From assembly GCA_012799315.1 (NCBI GenBank), contig JAAZLM010000211.1, positions 1 to 6,993 of the forward strand: a stretch of DNA of 6,993 nucleotides, given 5' to 3'. Position 1 is the first letter of the stretch. Each line of letters begins with the position of its first letter. The notes below the pieces were generated by a model. That model ran no database searches and was not told the DNA's origin. It worked only from the letters and a program-made list of their open reading frames with translations. The DNA comes from Clostridiales bacterium. Lineage in GTDB: Bacteria; Bacillota; Clostridia; Oscillospirales; Ruminococcaceae. Below are positions 1 through 6,105 of this stretch, piece after piece. The translations under genes were made by a program, and so were the position numbers.

Positions 1-194
1 GTAAATCTAATCTCATTCTGCACTTGAATCTCATCTATCACCCATCTAATAGCAGGTTTAAAATGTATTGCATCAAGTATCCCCCTCGCCGCAGACGGCG
101 TTATACAGTCGTAGCTCACTCGCTCAACCTTCATCTCTGGTCGGGTAAAGAGTGCATAATCCCCCGAAACCTCAAGTTTAAAACCGTAGCTCAT
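1..194 (-). CDS. cas5: Cas5 (Cas5d/Cas5c, type I-C), N-terminal part, cut by window edge
   Basis: The 64 visible residues begin [20 protein letters not shown] and continue with a [17 protein letters not shown] segment and [12 protein letters not shown]. This is the N-terminal RAMP fold typical of type I-C Cas5. In type I-C this protein replaces Cas6: it cuts the CRISPR repeat at the 3' base of its hairpin and stays bound to the 5' handle in Cascade. From memory of the Bacillus halodurans protein, a catalytic Tyr sits in a SIYWKP segment; here the equivalent is AIHFKP with His44, so the nuclease residue may differ. The rest (catalytic Lys/His region) lies outside the window. The ATG at 194-192 follows a near-perfect Shine-Dalgarno. 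The gene has its own promoter inside the cas3-cas5 gap and is probably followed off-window by cas8c, cas7, cas4, cas1 and cas2, the standard type I-C order (known of the family, not seen). Confidence 0.93.
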
Positions 195-198
195 TAAA

Positions 199-208
199 TC
201 ACCTCCTT
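199..208 (-). promoter_or_regulatory. Shine-Dalgarno of cas5, fully complementary to the anti-SD
   Basis: On the minus strand this reads AAGGAGGTGA, a ten-base complement of the 16S rRNA tail, four bases before the ATG at 194-192. Two bases of the TTC PAM (207-209) of the crRNA-like guide's target fall inside it, so guide binding would cover the edge of the ribosome site as well as the transcription start. A five-codon mini-ORF (ATG at 211-209, TAA at 196-194) runs over the SD and overlaps the cas5 start by one base; it has no SD of its own and is probably incidental. Confidence 0.85.
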
Positions 209-226
209 CATGCGTTTGTAAGTTAT
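207..226 (+). promoter_or_regulatory. Predicted PAM plus partial protospacer for the crRNA-like guide, in the cas5 leader
   Basis: TTC at 207-209 is followed by a sequence matching the spacer-like part of the 366-456 RNA (starting at 393). Position by position: 1-5 (ATGCG) match, 6 differs (guide G, target T), 7-11 (TTGTA) match, 12 differs (guide G, target A), 13-17 (GTTAT) match, 18 onwards diverges. Every mismatch within 1-18 is at a multiple of six, where type I Cascade flips the guide base out and does not read it. TTC is the established type I-C PAM. A full-length R-loop of about 34 bp would extend to roughly 243, over the cas5 transcription start (about 233) and the -10 (240-245). The match is too short for expected target destruction but suits repression. 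The guide also equals the antisense of the cas5 mRNA leader, so plain antisense pairing is an alternative. Confidence 0.8.
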
Positions 227-239
227 AAACTATGCTTAT

Positions 240-268
240 AGTATACTTGTTTCTAACATAACCATCAA
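240..268 (-). promoter_or_regulatory. Promoter of cas5 (and the downstream cas operon)
   Basis: Reading the minus strand, TTGATG (268-263) is separated by 17 bp from TATACT (245-240), close to the sigma-A consensus. Predicted start is near 233, giving a leader of about 40 nt before the cas5 ATG. It diverges from the promoter of the small RNA at 332-360, so both could fire independently. Its start site and -10 lie within the stretch a Cascade complex on the 207-226 site would cover. Confidence 0.72.
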
Positions 269-331: not shown

Positions 332-360
332 TTTACTAAAACTCTATTTAGTGTTATAAT
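332..360 (+). promoter_or_regulatory. Promoter of the crRNA-like small RNA
   Basis: TTTACT (332-337), a 17 bp spacer, and a perfect TATAAT (355-360). The sixth base after the -10 is G366, the first base of the degenerate CRISPR repeat, so the RNA should begin exactly with its repeat and no leader. No open reading frame with a ribosome site follows on this strand before the terminator at 418-456, which argues for a non-coding product. Confidence 0.75.
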
Positions 361-365
361 AAATT

Positions 366-392
366 GTCATTCGTTTGAATGTGGGTTGAAAT
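366..392 (+). repeat. Single degenerate type I-C-like CRISPR repeat (pseudo-repeat)
   Basis: It starts GT, then a five-pair hairpin CATTC-GTTT-GAATG (368-381), then TGGGTTGAAAT (382-392). Family repeats of type I-C begin GTCGC, have a short hairpin such as GCACTC/GAGTGC, and end GTGGATTGAAAT. The 11-base 3' end here differs from the usual TGGATTGAAAT handle at one base (A to G), and the stem is weaker (A/T-rich) but at the same place. There is one copy only, with no second repeat within the window, so it is not an array. The host's genuine array is not in the window, so divergence from it cannot be measured here. Confidence 0.78.
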
Positions 393-417
393 ATGCGGTT
401 GTAGGTTATCGCAACTC

Positions 418-456
418 TCTTCCCCCTCCTTAAAAATGGGAAGGGGAAGATTTTTT
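418..456 (+). terminator. Rho-independent terminator of the crRNA-like RNA
   Basis: TCTTCCCC (418-425) pairs with GGGGAAGA (443-450); after one C-A mismatch, TCC (427-429) pairs with GGA (439-441); the loop is about 8 bases; TTTTTT follows at 451-456. The T-tract faces the plus strand only: on the minus strand the hairpin is preceded by A's and followed by GAGTTG, so it should not stop cas3 transcripts. Its last two T's are part of the cas3 stop codon (455-457). Confidence 0.85.
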
Positions 457-2632
457 ATGCGTAGATTCCGATGCCTGTTTCTAAGTTAAGATTAAGGCCT
501 GTCTTTTCATTATAAGAATCCTCATCCGATAGAACAGCAAATTCATTTGCCACTAACCTAACCCTCCCAGCGTTTAGCAAGGCAATAAATTCATTTTCAT
601 AAATATTTACCGTATACGCTTGTAGAGATCGCAATGTCTTGGAGTGGAACTCCTCTTCTTTAAGTCTGCTAATTAGCTCATTTGCATTACCTCTAGATGG
701 AATTATTACTGGGCGAGTATCATCCTTGATTATTTTAAATTCGCTGGCGATATCTTTAAAATCAAAGTCCAGTTTGCTAACATTCTCCTCAAGCATCTGG
801 CTAATATTATTAGTGTCGAGACCTTTACTGCTCAAGATATACTGCATTTCCTCAAAATATGACCTTATTGCATCTAATGATGCAATGTCGTCAAATCTTC
901 TCATAGTTCCTTTAGTTATCTTGCTTATACTTTTAAAAAACTTGGGTTCACGTTTTGAATATTTCTCTTCAGAAATAAAAACATGAACTTCTCCTAAGAC
1001 TGGTTCGCCATTGCCATTCTTTAACTCTCCCTCACGATTACACCTGCCTGCTGACTGTATTATAGAATCAAGCCCAGCCATTGCTCTGTAAACAACAGGG
1101 AAATCGATGTCGACTCCAGCTTCAATTAGTGAGGTCGATATGACTTTACAAGGCATGCCCCTATTCAGTCTATCCTTTATTTCAGATATAACCGCCCTCC
1201 TATCGAAGGGGCACATATATGTTGATAGGTGATAAACATCTTCCCCTTCTAACATTGAGAACAATTCAAATGCATGCTTACGGGTATTAACTATACACAA
1301 TGCCTGACGATGCGCATTAATCTCTTTTGCTAGAGTATCGTTATCCATTAAACCTCTTTTGATGATATTGGTGCGCTTAAAAAAATTGTAAAGTCCTGTG
1401 ACATCATTGCATATCTCTTTTATCTCCATTTCTTTAGGGAACAAATTATCTAAGGCTGGTTGGGTGGCGGTGCATAATACTGCTGAGCATTTATAATTCG
1501 TCACTAATTCGGATATAACCTTAACACACGGTATAAGATAATTTATAGGAAGCATCTGAGCTTCATCAAAAATAATGACACTGTTGACTATATTGTGTAG
1601 CTTCCTACATCTTGAAGATCTATTTGCATATAGCGATTCAAAGAATTGAACATTAGTAGTCACTATTATTGGTATATCCCAATTCTCGGAGGACAACTTT
1701 AATTTATTATACTTTTCGTTTTCACCGTCTTTAAAATCAAAATTCGAGTGATGTTCTAGAACAACATCATCGCCGAATACTTTCCTAAATTCTTCAGCAT
1801 TCTGCTCAATTATGCTAGTATACGGTATAACATATATTATTCTATCCATGTCATTTTCAATTGCATGATTTAATGCGAAAGCCATTGATGAAAATGTCTT
1901 TCCACCGCCAGTTGGCACAGTTAAAGAAAATAGACCTCTTTGGTTCTCTGCTTTACTTATACAAGAATTCAATATCTCATTTCTTTTTGTGTTAATCGGG
2001 TTCGTAGCTTTCTCAAAGCTGCGGATTTTTTTGTTCAATTCATCAAGTAAGCTTTTAAGGTGCAGATCATAACCTCTTTGGACTTTATTATCCTTCATAA
2101 ATGCCTCAGTGTTTAAGAAATCCGCATCTACTAGGCATGAATAGAGCATCCTTATATAAAAAGATAGTGCAAAGCCAATACCATTCGTTATTTTTACATC
2201 TGGCATTGAGTTCGCTGGCAAACCAATTTCCGGCATTTCACCGAGGTAGCCATCATAAGAATATATATTATCATTATTGAGTTTGCTTGATAATGTTCCC
2301 TCAATACCAACATCATGTTTCGAGCCAGCATTAGGAATTCCCGCATGGTGTCCACCTATACAATATGCTATCATCTTCCCAATATTGCCGAATCTTTTGT
2401 AAGCTTCTTGTGCCCCCGCAGTAGAATGATCCACCAACTTTTTGCTGCCATTAATGCGATCTTGGAATTGCAGAGAATACTTGCCTAAATCATGTAACAT
2501 CCCAGCTATGTAGGCATATTCCCCCGCACCGAATTTATCGGCAAAAGACCTTGCCATTTCTGCAGTTTCTTCTAAATGGTCTATAAGCAAATGTGTTCTG
2601 CTACTTTCCTCCATTTTGTGTGCAATAAACAT
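455..2632 (-). CDS. cas3: Cas3, type I-C CRISPR-associated HD nuclease/helicase
   Basis: Cas3 is recruited by Cascade after target recognition, nicks the displaced strand with its HD domain and degrades DNA while moving 3' to 5'. All parts are visible in 725 residues. HD domain (about 1-200): His19, MLHDLGK (His47-Asp48), His69, GGHHAG (His95-His96) and a VDADF segment at 168-172. Helicase: Walker A VPTGGGKT (239-246), VTTNVQFFES near 324-333, Walker B DEAQ (356-359), motif III TATQP (388-392), motif V STSLIEAGVDID (499-510), and motif VI QSAGRCNREG (526-535) with the arginine finger. The C-terminal region follows to 725. The length is normal for type I-C and no motif is broken, so the gene looks functional. 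The ATG at 2632 is chosen because AAGGTG lies just upstream and the MFIAHK start aligns with family N-termini; a second Met is seven codons in. It has its own promoter at 2714-2746. The 260 bp gap before cas5 is unusually long for this operon and holds the small RNA unit. Confidence 0.96.
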   Translation of the reverse strand: MFIAHKMEESSRTHLLIDHLEETAEMARSFADKFGAGEYAYIAGMLHDLGKYSLQFQDRINGSKKLVDHSTAGAQEAYKRFGNIGKMIAYCIGGHHAGIPNAGSKHDVGIEGTLSSKLNNDNIYSYDGYLGEMPEIGLPANSMPDVKITNGIGFALSFYIRMLYSCLVDADFLNTEAFMKDNKVQRGYDLHLKSLLDELNKKIRSFEKATNPINTKRNEILNSCISKAENQRGLFSLTVPTGGGKTFSSMAFALNHAIENDMDRIIYVIPYTSIIEQNAEEFRKVFGDDVVLEHHSNFDFKDGENEKYNKLKLSSENWDIPIIVTTNVQFFESLYANRSSRCRKLHNIVNSVIIFDEAQMLPINYLIPCVKVISELVTNYKCSAVLCTATQPALDNLFPKEMEIKEICNDVTGLYNFFKRTNIIKRGLMDNDTLAKEINAHRQALCIVNTRKHAFELFSMLEGEDVYHLSTYMCPFDRRAVISEIKDRLNRGMPCKVISTSLIEAGVDIDFPVVYRAMAGLDSIIQSAGRCNREGELKNGNGEPVLGEVHVFISEEKYSKREPKFFKSISKITKGTMRRFDDIASLDAIRSYFEEMQYILSSKGLDTNNISQMLEENVSKLDFDFKDIASEFKIIKDDTRPVIIPSRGNANELISRLKEEEFHSKTLRSLQAYTVNIYENEFIALLNAGRVRLVANEFAVLSDEDSYNEKTGLNLNLETGIGIYA

Positions 2633-3088: not shown

Positions 3089-3472
3089 TTGCGTTTTAAA
3101 AAGTGTTTAATGCCGAGCATTGGCTTTGTTTTTCTTGGTTTAGGTGCGATCGGTGTTATTTTGCCCATATGGCCGACTACACCTTTTGTTTTAGTATCTG
3201 TTGCGTGTTTCTCATCTTCCCCCCGCATAAAAGCGAAAATTATGAAGATTCCTTTTTTCAGGGAGCATATTGAGAATTATAATAATAGGAACGGTCTATC
3301 ATCTAAAACATTATTAATTAGCCTTATTTGGTTATGGGGAATGCTGATAATATCTATGTCTATCATTCGAGAATTGTGGGCATTCATTCTATTATCTATT
3401 GTCGGCTCAGCCGTGACAACGCATATTCTCTTTGTTGCAAGGCCAAAAGATAAGGGAGAGAAGAAAGAATGA
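3089..3472 (+). CDS. YbaN/DUF454-family small inner-membrane protein
   Basis: A 127-residue membrane protein with the DUF454 signature: an N-terminal hydrophobic helix rich in Gly (SIGFVFLGLGAIGVILPI, about 10-27), then PTTPFVLVSVACFSSSPRIK (29-48), a polar stretch with FFREHIENY (56-64), and two further membrane segments (about 74-92 and 95-116), ending in a charged tail (KDKGEKKE). The P-TTPF motif and following Phe/Ser-rich segment are the family hallmark. The molecular function of the family is not established. Start choice is uncertain: the TTG at 3089 keeps the usual basic MRFKK-like beginning, but only a weak AGAAAG precedes it; the alternative ATG at 3110 would remove seven residues and also lacks a clear SD. 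It overlaps the next gene by ATGA, implying translational coupling. Confidence 0.85.
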   Translation: MRFKKCLMPSIGFVFLGLGAIGVILPIWPTTPFVLVSVACFSSSPRIKAKIMKIPFFREHIENYNNRNGLSSKTLLISLIWLWGMLIISMSIIRELWAFILLSIVGSAVTTHILFVARPKDKGEKKE

Positions 3473-4122
3473 AGCATAACTTTAGAATTTTAGAGGCCGT
3501 GTTCGATGTTCTATATCTGGGCATCGCATTGATAATCGGGGTTATACTAATGTTGAGTTCAATCAATAATTCCGCAAGATTAGTTGCAGGCATTGCCGTA
3601 TTAACATTAACTATTGGCGATTCGTTCCATCTAGTGCCGCGGATAATACATATTACTACACCTAATGTATCGGATCGTATTTATTATTTTCTTGGACGTG
3701 GAAAACAAATTACATCAATTACGATGGCAATTTTCTATTTACTTCTATGGTGGATAGGAACAATGGTTTTACCAGTCGGTAACGTCAAGGTTTACTCCTA
3801 TCTTATTTTTATTCTTGTTGCTATACGTATTATAATGTGCATAATGCCGCAGAATAAATGGCTTGAAAAAGATGCGGATAACCTGTGGGGAATTTGGCGA
3901 AATGTCCCGTTCCTAGCTATTGGGCTCATTGTAGCGACACTGTTTTTCATTTATAGATCGTCATTCCAACAGCTTGGGTTAATGTGGGTGGCTATCCTAA
4001 TAAGTTTCGCATTCTATATGCCTGTTGTGATCTGGGCGGACAAGGTCCCAAAAATCGGGATGCTCATGTTGCCTAAATCATGTACATATATTTGGATACT
4101 TATAATGTTCCTATCGCTGTAA
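3469..4122 (+). CDS. Conserved-looking polytopic membrane protein, function unknown
   Basis: I do not recognise this 217-residue protein. It is almost wholly membrane-embedded, with about seven predicted segments: roughly 11-30, 36-50, 82-101, 108-127, 145-162, 170-188 and 198-216. Notable polar spots inside or beside membranes are GDSFHLVPRI (50-59), a charged loop DRIYYFLGRGKQ (69-80), and QNKWLEKDADNLWGIWRN (128-145). A His/Asp/Arg cluster near 51-58 at a membrane edge could be functional (inference). There is no signal peptide distinct from the first helix. The ATG at 3469 overlaps the preceding stop as ATGA, with a purine-rich GGGAGAGAAG upstream, so the two are surely co-translated. Only 44 bp separate it from katA and I see no terminator, so it likely shares the katA transcript. 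Confidence 0.75.
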   Translation: MKHNFRILEAVFDVLYLGIALIIGVILMLSSINNSARLVAGIAVLTLTIGDSFHLVPRIIHITTPNVSDRIYYFLGRGKQITSITMAIFYLLLWWIGTMVLPVGNVKVYSYLIFILVAIRIIMCIMPQNKWLEKDADNLWGIWRNVPFLAIGLIVATLFFIYRSSFQQLGLMWVAILISFAFYMPVVIWADKVPKIGMLMLPKSCTYIWILIMFLSL

Positions 4123-4166: not shown

Positions 4167-5681
4167 ATGAAAAAACTGCAAAAACTCACGAACGAGGTCG
4201 GTGCACCGGTCGCCGATAATGAAAATGCTATTACTGCGGGGCCACGTGGCCCAGTTGTAATGCAGGATGTTTGGCTGATGGAAAAGATGGCTCACTTTAA
4301 CCGTGAAGTTATTCCAGAGCGACGAATGCACGCAAAAGGTTGGGGTGCATATGGTAACCTGACCGTAACACATGATATTTCACAATATACTAAGGCGAAA
4401 GTATTGCAGCCTGGAGCAAAAACTGATCTATTTATTCGATTCTCTACTGTTGCCGGCGAACGTGGCGCAGCTGATTGTGAAAGAGATATTCGTGGTACTG
4501 CTGTAAAGTTCTATACAGAAGAGGGAAATTGGGACTTAGTTGGCAACAATACTCCTACATTCTTTATCCGAGATGTACATAACTTCGCTGACTTAAACCG
4601 TGCAGTTAAGAGGGATCCCCGAACGGGACGCCGCTCCGCTCAAAATAACTGGGACTTTTGGACCTTGTTACCCGAATGTTTCCATCAAGTTACTATCGTA
4701 ATGAGTGATCGTGGAATACCTGCATCTTTCCGAAATATGCACTTCTTTGGCGAACATACCTACTCCTTTTATAACGATAAAAATGAACGAGTATGGTGTA
4801 AATTCCATTTCAGAACTCAACAAGGAATTAAGAATCTTTCCAATAAGGAAGCAGCCGAAATCAACGGCATGGATAGAGAATATCATGGTAAAGATCTGTT
4901 TGATGCTATTGAACGTGGCGATTACCCAAAATGGACTATGTATGTTCAAATCATGACAGAGCAGCAAGCGAAAAATCACTATGAAAACCCATTCGATATT
5001 ACCAAGATTTGGAGAAAGTCGGAATACCCGCTCATTGAAGTTGGTGTTTTAGAGCTTAACCGTAACCCGGAAAACTACTTTGCCGAGGTTGAGCAAGCGG
5101 CATTCACACCGGCGCACGTTGTTCCCGGTATTGGATTCAGCCCTGATCGCTTTTTACAAGGAAGATTATTCTCATATGGAGATGCTCAAAGATACCGCCT
5201 AGGCGTTAACCATAACCTCATTCCTGTTAATCGTGCTAAAGTTGAAGTTACCGATTATCATCGTGATGGCGCAATGAGAGTAGATGGAAACTATGGCGGG
5301 GCACCGGCATATACTCCGAATAGTCAAGGAATATGGACGGCGCAACCCGATGTTATGGAGCCTCCTCTTGATTTAGATGGCGCAATGTATCGCTACGATC
5401 CCAAGGATGATCCTACTGACGATTGTTTCCGTGCAGGCGGGGATTTATGGCGCTTAATGGCGGAGGATAAAAAGCAGGTTCTAATTGAGAATACTGTTGA
5501 AGATATGGCTCCTGTAACAAAGAATATCAAATATCGTCATGCTGCCCATTGCTATTTGGCGGATCCCGAATACGGCGAGCGATTTGCTAATGCGGCTGGC
5601 TTAAATTTCGATAAGGTTAAGGAATTATCTAAACTAAGTCATGATGAATTAGTTGAAGCAACATTGAAAGATATGGACTAG
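4167..5681 (+). CDS. katA: Monofunctional heme catalase (small-subunit, KatA type)
   Basis: This enzyme turns two hydrogen peroxide into water and oxygen in the cytoplasm, as a heme-b homotetramer in this family. The 504-residue length is that of small-subunit catalases. Key features: the N-terminal ITAGPRGP arm; distal His55 in [15 protein letters not shown]; the [13 protein letters not shown] segment (91-103); catalytic Asn128 in [11 protein letters not shown]; and the proximal heme ligand Tyr337 in [14 protein letters not shown] with Arg333. C-terminal [19 protein letters not shown] is also typical. Nothing is truncated or altered at the active site. AAAGGAAGGTG sits seven bases before the ATG, a strong ribosome site. 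It lies 44 bp after a membrane-protein gene and 25 bp before a Fur-family regulator, which probably controls it. Codon use is not obviously unlike its neighbours. Confidence 0.98.
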
Positions 5682-5706
5682 GCACATTAAAGGGAAGTGT
5701 AGTATT

Positions 5707-6105
5707 ATGAAAATGCAGCGAAAAACTAGGCAACGTCAATTGATATTAGACGCAATACAGGCTCGCTGCGACCACCCCTCTGCAGGCGAAATATACCTAG
5801 ATGTTCGTAAGATCGATAGCAAAATCAGTCGTGGCACAGTATATCGCAATTTAAATGTACTAGTAAAGCAAGGGAAAATACTTCATATTAAACTCCCGTA
5901 CAAAGATCGATATGAGCCCATCAAGCAGCCGCACTACCATTTTAGATGTTCGATATGCGGTGCAATTGCCGATGTCCCCCTCCCTTATGACAAGGATTTA
6001 GATGATAGGACGGCTAAGGAGAGTGGATTCATCGTTGAGAGTCATCGAATTATATTCGAGGGGTTTTGTATCGATTGCCAGCGCAAGAAGTCTATAACTA
6101 AATAA
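5707..6105 (+). CDS. perR: Fur-family metalloregulator, PerR-like
   Basis: A 132-residue Fur-family repressor: N-terminal winged helix (RQRQLILDAIQ, HPSAGEIYLDVRK, and recognition helix SRGTVYRNLNVLVKQG at 41-56) and a C-terminal dimerisation/metal domain. The structural zinc site is two CxxC pairs, Cys81/Cys84 and Cys121/Cys124. Aligned by hand to Bacillus subtilis PerR, the regulatory ligands would be His23, Glu70 (Asp85 in PerR), His76, His78 and Asp89 (Asp104). The Asp104 equivalent, the residue linked to peroxide sensing, is kept; the Asp85 position is Glu, a conservative change. Immediate placement after katA supports a peroxide-responsive role: repression with Fe/Mn and release after iron-catalysed His oxidation (family knowledge). 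A Fur or Zur role is not excluded. SD-like GGGAAGTG precedes the ATG; the strong terminator follows directly. Confidence 0.85.
   Translation: MKMQRKTRQRQLILDAIQARCDHPSAGEIYLDVRKIDSKISRGTVYRNLNVLVKQGKILHIKLPYKDRYEPIKQPHYHFRCSICGAIADVPLPYDKDLDDRTAKESGFIVESHRIIFEGFCIDCQRKKSITK

What the first reader, a model, noticed from the sequence alone, without database searches (positions are those of the whole stretch)
207..243. Guide matches the cas5 promoter/leader with mismatches only at positions 6, 12 and 18, next to a TTC PAM
Seen: the guide beginning at 393 equals the plus strand beginning at 210 at 1-5, 7-11 and 13-17; the differences lie exactly at 6, 12 and 18, and TTC occupies 207-209. Known: type I Cascade does not read every sixth guide base, and the type I-C PAM is TTC. 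The spacing of mismatches is hard to explain as chance or as recent duplication, and indicates selection on Cascade-mediated pairing. A bound complex would cover the cas5 start site and -10. About 15 readable pairs should allow binding and repression rather than self-cleavage.
Basis: partly seen in the sequence, partly recalled or inferred. Interest (0 to 1): 0.95.

Follow-up and report, generated by a model that had tools for sequence, protein, structure and literature searches.

The report
Guide RNA aimed at cas promoter
Between two genes of a bacterial type I-C CRISPR system lies a crRNA-like element whose guide matches the start region of the next CRISPR gene except at positions that CRISPR complexes are known to skip; the same pattern recurs, with different letters, in about fifty related gene clusters, so the element likely lets the CRISPR machinery turn down its own production.

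Summary
Guide 393-409 matches + strand 210-226 at positions 1-5, 7-11 and 13-17 beside TTC. It differs at 6 and 12, and the match ends at 17. Expected chance hits in this gap: about 2e-8 with the PAM. The guide follows a degenerate type I-C repeat (hairpin plus handle TGGGTTGAAAT) and is followed by a terminator hairpin, antisense between cas3 and cas5c.

In 290 distinct I-C cas5 loci, 50 carry such an element matching its own region upstream of cas5 at 14 or more of 17 positions; scrambled guides reach this in 17 of 1620 trials. Over 46 non-redundant guides, positions 6 and 12 match 13 times each (background level). The other positions from 1 to 15 match 44-46 times, and pairing fades after 17. 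In related pairs of loci the target follows 19 of 23 guide changes at read positions and 0 of 16 at 6/12.

Best reading: a type I-C counterpart of CreR, predicted to guide Cascade to repress its own cas operon without cutting. CreR is known in I-B, I-E and V-A. No expression or binding was tested.

The parts
3..194 (-). cas5c (Cas5d), N-terminal 64 aa; the contig ends inside the gene; ATG at 194-192
   Evidence: TIGR01876 87.9 bits against cut-off 85; window is G000:C113:1-6993
200..206 (-). GGAGGTG, likely ribosome-binding site of cas5
   Evidence: read from sequence
207..209 (+). TTC, PAM of the target
   Evidence: sequence; TTC in 36 of 50 related elements, TTT 11, CTT 2, TTA 1
210..226 (+). 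target (protospacer) in the cas5 leader, matched by the guide at 15 of 17, mismatches at 6 and 12
   Evidence: chance 1.7e-8
240..268 (-). predicted cas5 promoter, TTGATG 17 nt TATACT; start expected near 233
   Evidence: consensus scan only, 9 of 12
332..360 (+). predicted promoter of the small RNA, TTTACT 17 nt TATAAT with TG before it
   Evidence: consensus scan, 10 of 12
361..392 (+). degenerate I-C repeat: stem 368-372/377-381 (CATTC/GAATG), loop GTTT, 11-nt handle TGGGTTGAAAT 382-392
   Evidence: handle 10 of 11 identical to the genome's own array repeat on C72; the 22 bases before it only 6 of 22; stem 5 pairs against 8 in the array repeat, two of the five changed on both sides; stem in the fold
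393..409 (+). guide, matched part
410..417 (+). unmatched filler between guide and terminator hairpin
418..456 (+). terminator hairpin and U tract; begins at guide position 26
   Evidence: fold z -3.86 for 361-455; median start 27 in relatives. The simple terminator scan did not list it
455..2632 (-). cas3, HD nuclease-helicase, 725 aa
   Evidence: TIGR01587 and TIGR01596 above cut-off

Best explanation
The window holds a short crRNA-like gene between cas3 and cas5 whose guide matches the cas5 leader at every base that Cascade is known to read within the first 17, and which is predicted to direct the cell's type I-C Cascade there so that the cas operon represses itself. Shown by sequence: promoter-like site, degenerate repeat with an I-C handle, 17-nt guide, terminator hairpin, TTC next to the target, and the same design with other letters in about 50 related loci. 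Inferred: the RNA is made, Cas5 cuts it at the base of the repeat stem, Cascade loads it and sits over the cas5 start site and -10, and blocks RNA polymerase. Also inferred: because only three five-base segments pair and the guide is shorter than a normal spacer, Cas3 is not brought in, so the promoter is repressed rather than cut. Array crRNAs and anti-CRISPRs that occupy Cascade would then relieve the repression, as reported for CreR.
For: (1) Exact match at 15 of 15 read positions beside TTC, chance about 2e-8. (2) The handle differs by one base from the genome's own I-C array repeat; the stem is shorter (5 pairs against 8) and two of its five pairs have changed on both sides while still pairing. 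(3) 50 of 290 distinct loci have such an element with 14 or more of 17 matched to their own cas5 upstream region; controls 17 of 1620 (scrambled guides), 11 of 1620 (guides moved to other loci), 0 of 10 (decoy handles). (4) Position tally over 46 non-redundant guides: 44-46 matches at each of 1-5, 7-11, 13-15; 13 at 6; 13 at 12; 41 at 16; 35 at 17; 13 at 18; then background. (5) Related pairs: target follows 19 of 23 read-position guide changes, 0 of 16 at 6/12. (6) PAM TTC in 36 of 50. (7) In the earlier set of 203 distinct loci, 45 of 45 elements with cas3 in view lie in the cas3-cas5 gap, and none of the 108 loci with a gap under 120 nt has one. (8) Terminator hairpin found in 34 of 50, 30 of these starting at guide positions 24-32; 8 of 1000 in shuffles. 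(9) Positions 6 and 12 were shown experimentally to be dispensable, and 1-5/7-11 essential, in an I-B CreA (PMC8501985, passages).
Against: No RNA, binding or expression data. The assembly is 79% complete and cas8c was not found in it, so a working Cascade is not proven in this genome. The predicted promoters are weak evidence (3 promoter-like sites found, 2.4 expected). The fold pairs part of the handle (383-388) with 412-417, which could compete with loading. 31 of 81 handles do not reach 14 of 17: six are a true array in L113; L170 and L250 reach 13 beside TTC and may be real; L010, L092 and L108 match only 11-12 of 17 beside TTC; most of the rest look like chance handles. 16 of 50 elements gave no terminator by my scan and 11 of 46 no stem of four or more pairs.
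Confidence: 0.9

Rival explanations
1. A plain antisense RNA that pairs with the cas5 message next to its ribosome-binding site and blocks translation, without Cascade.
For: In the window the guide is complementary to the predicted cas5 5' leader, just upstream of the ribosome-binding site.
Against: Nine of 50 related elements match the other strand, at 90-191 nt upstream of cas5; the 35-nt footprint of eight of these overlaps the predicted promoter and the ninth ends next to its -35. Pairing shows a six-base rhythm and a PAM, which antisense pairing does not need. (That the guide follows a crRNA handle is how the elements were searched for, so it is not counted here.)
Confidence: 0.04
2. A relic of a CRISPR array with a spacer taken by accident from the cas5 leader (self-targeting spacer), now decaying.
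For: Repeat is degenerate and stands alone.
Against: Decay would scatter mismatches; here 70 of 92 cells at 6/12 mismatch against 10 of 598 at 1-5, 7-11, 13-15 (46 elements). Guides and targets change together across loci.
Confidence: 0.02
3. A CreTA-type toxin-antitoxin: the guide represses a small toxin gene rather than the cas operon.
For: CreA guides have the same 1-5/7-11 pairing logic (PMC8501985). Reading frames of 28 aa (236-322, minus) and 29 aa (270-359, plus) exist in the gap.
Against: The promoter-like site 268-240 leads straight into cas5 with about 40 nt of leader, and no plus-strand promoter-like site was found near the target. The 28-aa frame begins upstream of the predicted start site; the 29-aa frame lies upstream of the small RNA itself. 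Not examined by hand in the relatives.
Confidence: 0.03
4. A repeat-like decoy RNA (Racr-like) that jams Cascade assembly.
For: A solitary I-C repeat with such an effect exists in a prophage (PMC10651486, passages).
Against: It lies inside the cas operon, carries a guide kept matched to the cas5 upstream region in 50 loci, and has a terminator at a set distance. No record of viral contigs carried this exact handle plus guide.
Confidence: 0.02

Closest known systems
CreR, cas-regulating RNA (Liu et al. 2023, Cell Host Microbe; the paper itself was not read, seen only through passages of PMC13131331, PMC12737573, PMC12948488)
   Same: crRNA-like RNA with limited complementarity to its own cas promoter; expected to make the effector repress its own genes
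   Different: Reported for I-B, I-E and V-A (PMC13131331). Here type I-C, processed by Cas5 instead of Cas6 (recalled; legend in PMC10651486), single degenerate repeat, terminator in place of the second repeat, 17-nt pairing in three segments. How many repeats and how much pairing the published CreRs have was not seen
CreA of CreTA (PMC8501985, passages and section 14)
   Same: Degenerate repeat, TTC PAM, pairing that ignores positions 6 and 12; in H. hispanica one repeat and a terminator
   Different: CreA pairs 1-5 and 7-11 only and represses an RNA toxin; here a third segment 13-17 is kept and the target is the cas operon
Standalone repeats / mini-arrays of Shmakov et al. 2023 (not held; content recalled)
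   Same: Repeat-like elements in cas loci, mostly type I, with spacers partly complementary to cas promoters
   Different: Whether that survey lists I-C elements of this kind could not be checked; the position tally here is not known to me from it
Racr, RNA anti-CRISPRs (PMC10651486, passages)
   Same: Solitary I-C repeat
   Different: Phage-borne, inhibits assembly, no conserved target

Membership tests
CreR | Standalone repeat-like sequence with a working-looking handle at the cas locus | tested here: met
   handle 10 of 11 to own array repeat, paired stem
CreR | Guide with limited complementarity to the cognate cas promoter, next to a PAM | tested here: met
   the promoter itself is only predicted
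CreR | RNA made, processed and bound by the effector | not testable with these tools
   no RNA data
CreR | Effector-dependent repression of the cas genes, relieved by crRNA competition or Acr | not testable with these tools
   needs reporter strains
Type I-C CRISPR-Cas | Cas5c and Cas3 of the subtype | tested here: met
   TIGR01876 above its cut-off, general Cas3 models above cut-off
Type I-C CRISPR-Cas | Cas8c present | tested here: inconclusive
   TIGR01863 not found in the 79% complete assembly; contig ends inside cas5
CreTA | Toxin gene under the targeted promoter | tested here: not met
   predicted promoter runs directly into cas5; two frames of 28 and 29 aa in the gap are not placed downstream of it; rests on a promoter prediction
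Racr | Encoded by a mobile element, no guide target | tested here: not met
   between cas3 and cas5, guide matches cas5 leader

The most novel reading that the evidence does not exclude
A widespread type I-C autoregulator in Clostridia and at least one further lineage of the phylum: a one-repeat, Cas6-free guide RNA whose terminator hairpin sits about 27 nt into the guide and stands in for the second repeat, giving a shortened Cascade that pairs through exactly three five-base segments, so that it represses and cannot recruit Cas3. Its guide-target pairs are an evolutionary record, over some fifty loci, of Cascade's unread sixth bases.
Probability: 0.5. Interest if true: 0.82.

Novelty: new variant of a known kind. 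Interest (0 to 1): 0.72.

Why it matters
It extends RNA-guided self-control of CRISPR, reported for I-B, I-E and V-A, to I-C. The 46 non-redundant guide-target pairs show from evolution alone which guide bases Cascade reads, and that natural regulators stop at about three segments. This makes testable how much pairing separates repression from cutting in a system without Cas6, and offers ready-made I-C repression guides.

Tried and rejected
Chance match: rejected. Antisense RNA, array relic, CreTA and Racr: see rivals. A second chromosomal target: the only other near match apart from the guide itself (C240, 2 mismatches) lies inside a phosphofructokinase-like reading frame and is taken as chance. 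A phage copy of handle plus guide: 0 exact matches in viral contigs. Rfam: nothing in 1-700 up to E = 1. Orthologues in the same genus: no other genome held (searched one genome, this one). Selection for mismatch at 6 and 12: not supported, matching there is at background. My first promoter-overlap count (27 of 46) used a strict footprint; with 10 nt upstream of -35 to 20 nt past the start it is 47 of 49, against 56% for random placement. The wider window was chosen after seeing the first count, so this is moderate evidence only. The stem before the handle is 4 or more pairs in 35 of 46, against 26% in shuffles; not all repeats keep a clear stem. One of the 50 positives (L196, handle on the other strand) is probably false; it was kept in all counts. 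The looser list (13 or more of 17) holds two more doubtful rows (L184 plus strand, L226), which fall below the cut-off. Searches were earlier, smaller runs of the scan. Duplicates dropped before counting: 19 of 309 loci with a cas5 start (identical upstream stretch or too little of it; for example L038, the same cas5 as L015), and 4 of 50 guides as near-copies. 11 of the 290 loci had less than 700 nt upstream.

Full report
Check of the observation. Positions 1-5, 7-11 and 13-17 are equal, 6, 12 and 18 differ, and TTC is at 207-209. Beyond 18 the pairing is gone, so the internal mismatches are 6 and 12. In the base composition of the 261-nt gap, a match at all 15 read positions next to TTC is expected 1.7e-8 times. 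The held genome has only one exact site.

Anatomy. The window is the contig C113 of a 1.26 Mb, 79% complete assembly. Genes on the minus strand are cas3 (455-2632) and the first 64 codons of cas5c. Between them, on the plus strand, lie a promoter-like site (332-360), a repeat-like stretch with a five-pair stem (368-372/377-381) and the 11-nt handle 382-392, the guide, and a hairpin with a U tract at 418-456 that overlaps the cas3 stop codon. The fold of 361-455 is 3.9 standard deviations more stable than shuffles. The genome's own array, cut by the end of contig C72, has the repeat GTCGTCCCTCTTATGAGGGACGTGGATTGAAAT. Its handle differs from the window's in one base, while the 22 bases before it agree at only 6 of 22. 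The array stem has eight pairs; the window's has five, of which three have the same letters and two have changed on both sides (G-C to A-T, C-G to T-A) and still pair. The two complete spacers of the array are 35 and 34 nt by reading.

Relatives. Not every match listed in those calls was fetched. Of 312 loci held, 309 gave a cas5 start and 290 were distinct. I looked 700 nt upstream of cas5 for the handle (TGGRTTGAAAY, at most one mismatch), on both strands. I then took the best ungapped match of the next 17 bases to the same region, all positions weighted alike, any PAM (TTC used only to break ties). There were 81 handles in 71 loci. Of these, 50 (in 50 loci) reached 14 or more of 17; 31 did not. 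Scrambled guides reached it in 17 of 1620, guides moved to other loci in 11 of 1620, and decoy handles in 0 of 10. Of the 75 named loci left after removing duplicates, 25 are positive.

The tally. Over 46 non-redundant guides the matches are: positions 1-5: 44, 45, 45, 46, 45; 6: 13; 7-11: 45, 44, 45, 46, 46; 12: 13; 13-15: 44, 44, 46; 16: 41; 17: 35; 18: 13; then 6-18 of 46 at positions 19-30. Mismatches confined to 6 and 12 within the first 16 bases: 31 of 46. Because detection treated all positions alike, this rhythm is not built in; the cut-off of 14 of 17 does raise the general level of matching inside 1-17. Matching at 6, 12 and 18 equals the background of positions 19-30 (26%, on the 46 elements of the earlier set), so these bases look unread, not selected to mismatch.

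Covariation. In 11 pairs of loci with similar guides (12-16 of 17 equal), the same target strand and targets within 25 nt of each other in place, guide changes at read positions were followed by the target in 19 of 23 cases, and at 6/12 in 0 of 16. These pairs are not all independent (L015, L040, L042 and L043 give five of them, L186 two), and similar guides need not mean common descent. For example, L030 and L225 differ at guide positions 9, 15 and 16 and their targets differ in step; L040 and L042 differ in the guide only at 6 and 12.

Place and partners. Of 191 loci with cas3 in view (the 203-locus set), none of 108 with a gap under 120 nt has the element and 45 of 83 with a longer gap do; all 45 handles lie inside the gap. 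In one search, 49 of 50 handles run against the operon. Targets lie on the minus strand in 41 and on the plus strand in 9. A 35-nt complex would overlap the predicted promoter region in 47 of 49, against 56% for random placement. One element (L302) comes from a genome of the same phylum but another class than the window's.

The 3' end. A terminator hairpin was found in 34 of 50; it starts at a median guide position of 27, 30 of 34 within 24-32; shuffles gave 8 of 1000. The two spacers seen in the genome's array are 34-35 nt, so the guide is shortened. In an I-B system, spacers of 24 bp or less repress without interference, while 28-30 bp still allow some cutting (PMC10989794, abstract and passages). 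That the hairpin takes the role of the 3' repeat stem of an I-C crRNA is my inference.

Mechanism. The best-supported reading is a cas-regulating RNA, CreR-like, using I-C Cascade. Shown: the anatomy, the match, its conservation with changing letters, the PAM, and the unread sixth bases. Inferred: transcription, cutting by Cas5, loading, repression, relief by crRNAs or anti-CRISPRs. In an I-B CreA, mutation of guide bases 6 and 12 had no effect while any of the other ten of the first twelve did (PMC8501985, passages), which is the experimental counterpart of the tally here. That type I-C uses a TTC PAM, and that Cas5 is its processing enzyme leaving an 11-nt handle, is recalled; Cas5 processing is also stated in a figure legend of PMC10651486 (passages).

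Known or new. Passages of PMC13131331 give CreR for I-B, I-E and V-A; PMC12737573 speaks of type I and V-A; PMC12948488 describes CreR briefly. My searches that named type I-C showed no I-C case in their listings; most of the listed papers were not opened. Searches looked for CreR and mini-CRISPR in general. The two key papers (Liu 2023, not listed; Shmakov 2023, not held) were not read, so priority for I-C is open. I file it as a new variant of a known kind: it works like CreR, meets the sequence criteria, and the functional criteria are untested.

Noticed in passing
L096, handles 285 and 352 nt upstream of cas5: Two repeats here: a spacer of normal length between them, then the regulating guide after the second, ending in a hairpin that still begins like a repeat (GTCGC). 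It looks like an intermediate between a small array and the one-repeat form.
   Followed up: partly
L082, L085, L089, L096, L106, L117, L179, after the guide: Terminator hairpins have similar letters (near GGGCAGATGC...GCATCTGCCC), and in some loci start like a repeat, as if the second repeat had turned into a terminator.
   Followed up: partly
L010, L092, L108: Handle present but only 11-12 of 17 matched, from a TTC and with a mismatch at 6; in L108 a one-base shift seems to break the match. Possible recent loss.
   Followed up: no
window 383-388 and 412-417: GGGTTG of the handle can pair with CAACTC beyond the matched guide, which might hide the handle.
   Followed up: no
L006 (contig C72), minus strand from 8791: End of the genome's I-C array; the last repeat is degenerate; the reading frames listed on this contig look like ordinary metabolic genes, none recognised as cas (no family search made).
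   Followed up: partly
window 3089-4122: A DUF454 protein followed by a 217-aa membrane-like protein without a Pfam or NCBIfam match.
   Followed up: no
window 4167-6105: Catalase gene followed by a Fur/PerR-family regulator, likely a peroxide response unit.
   Followed up: no
window 2481-2496 and 4069-4084: A 16-base exact repeat between the cas3 HD-motif region and the 217-aa gene, in unrelated contexts; probably chance.
   Followed up: no
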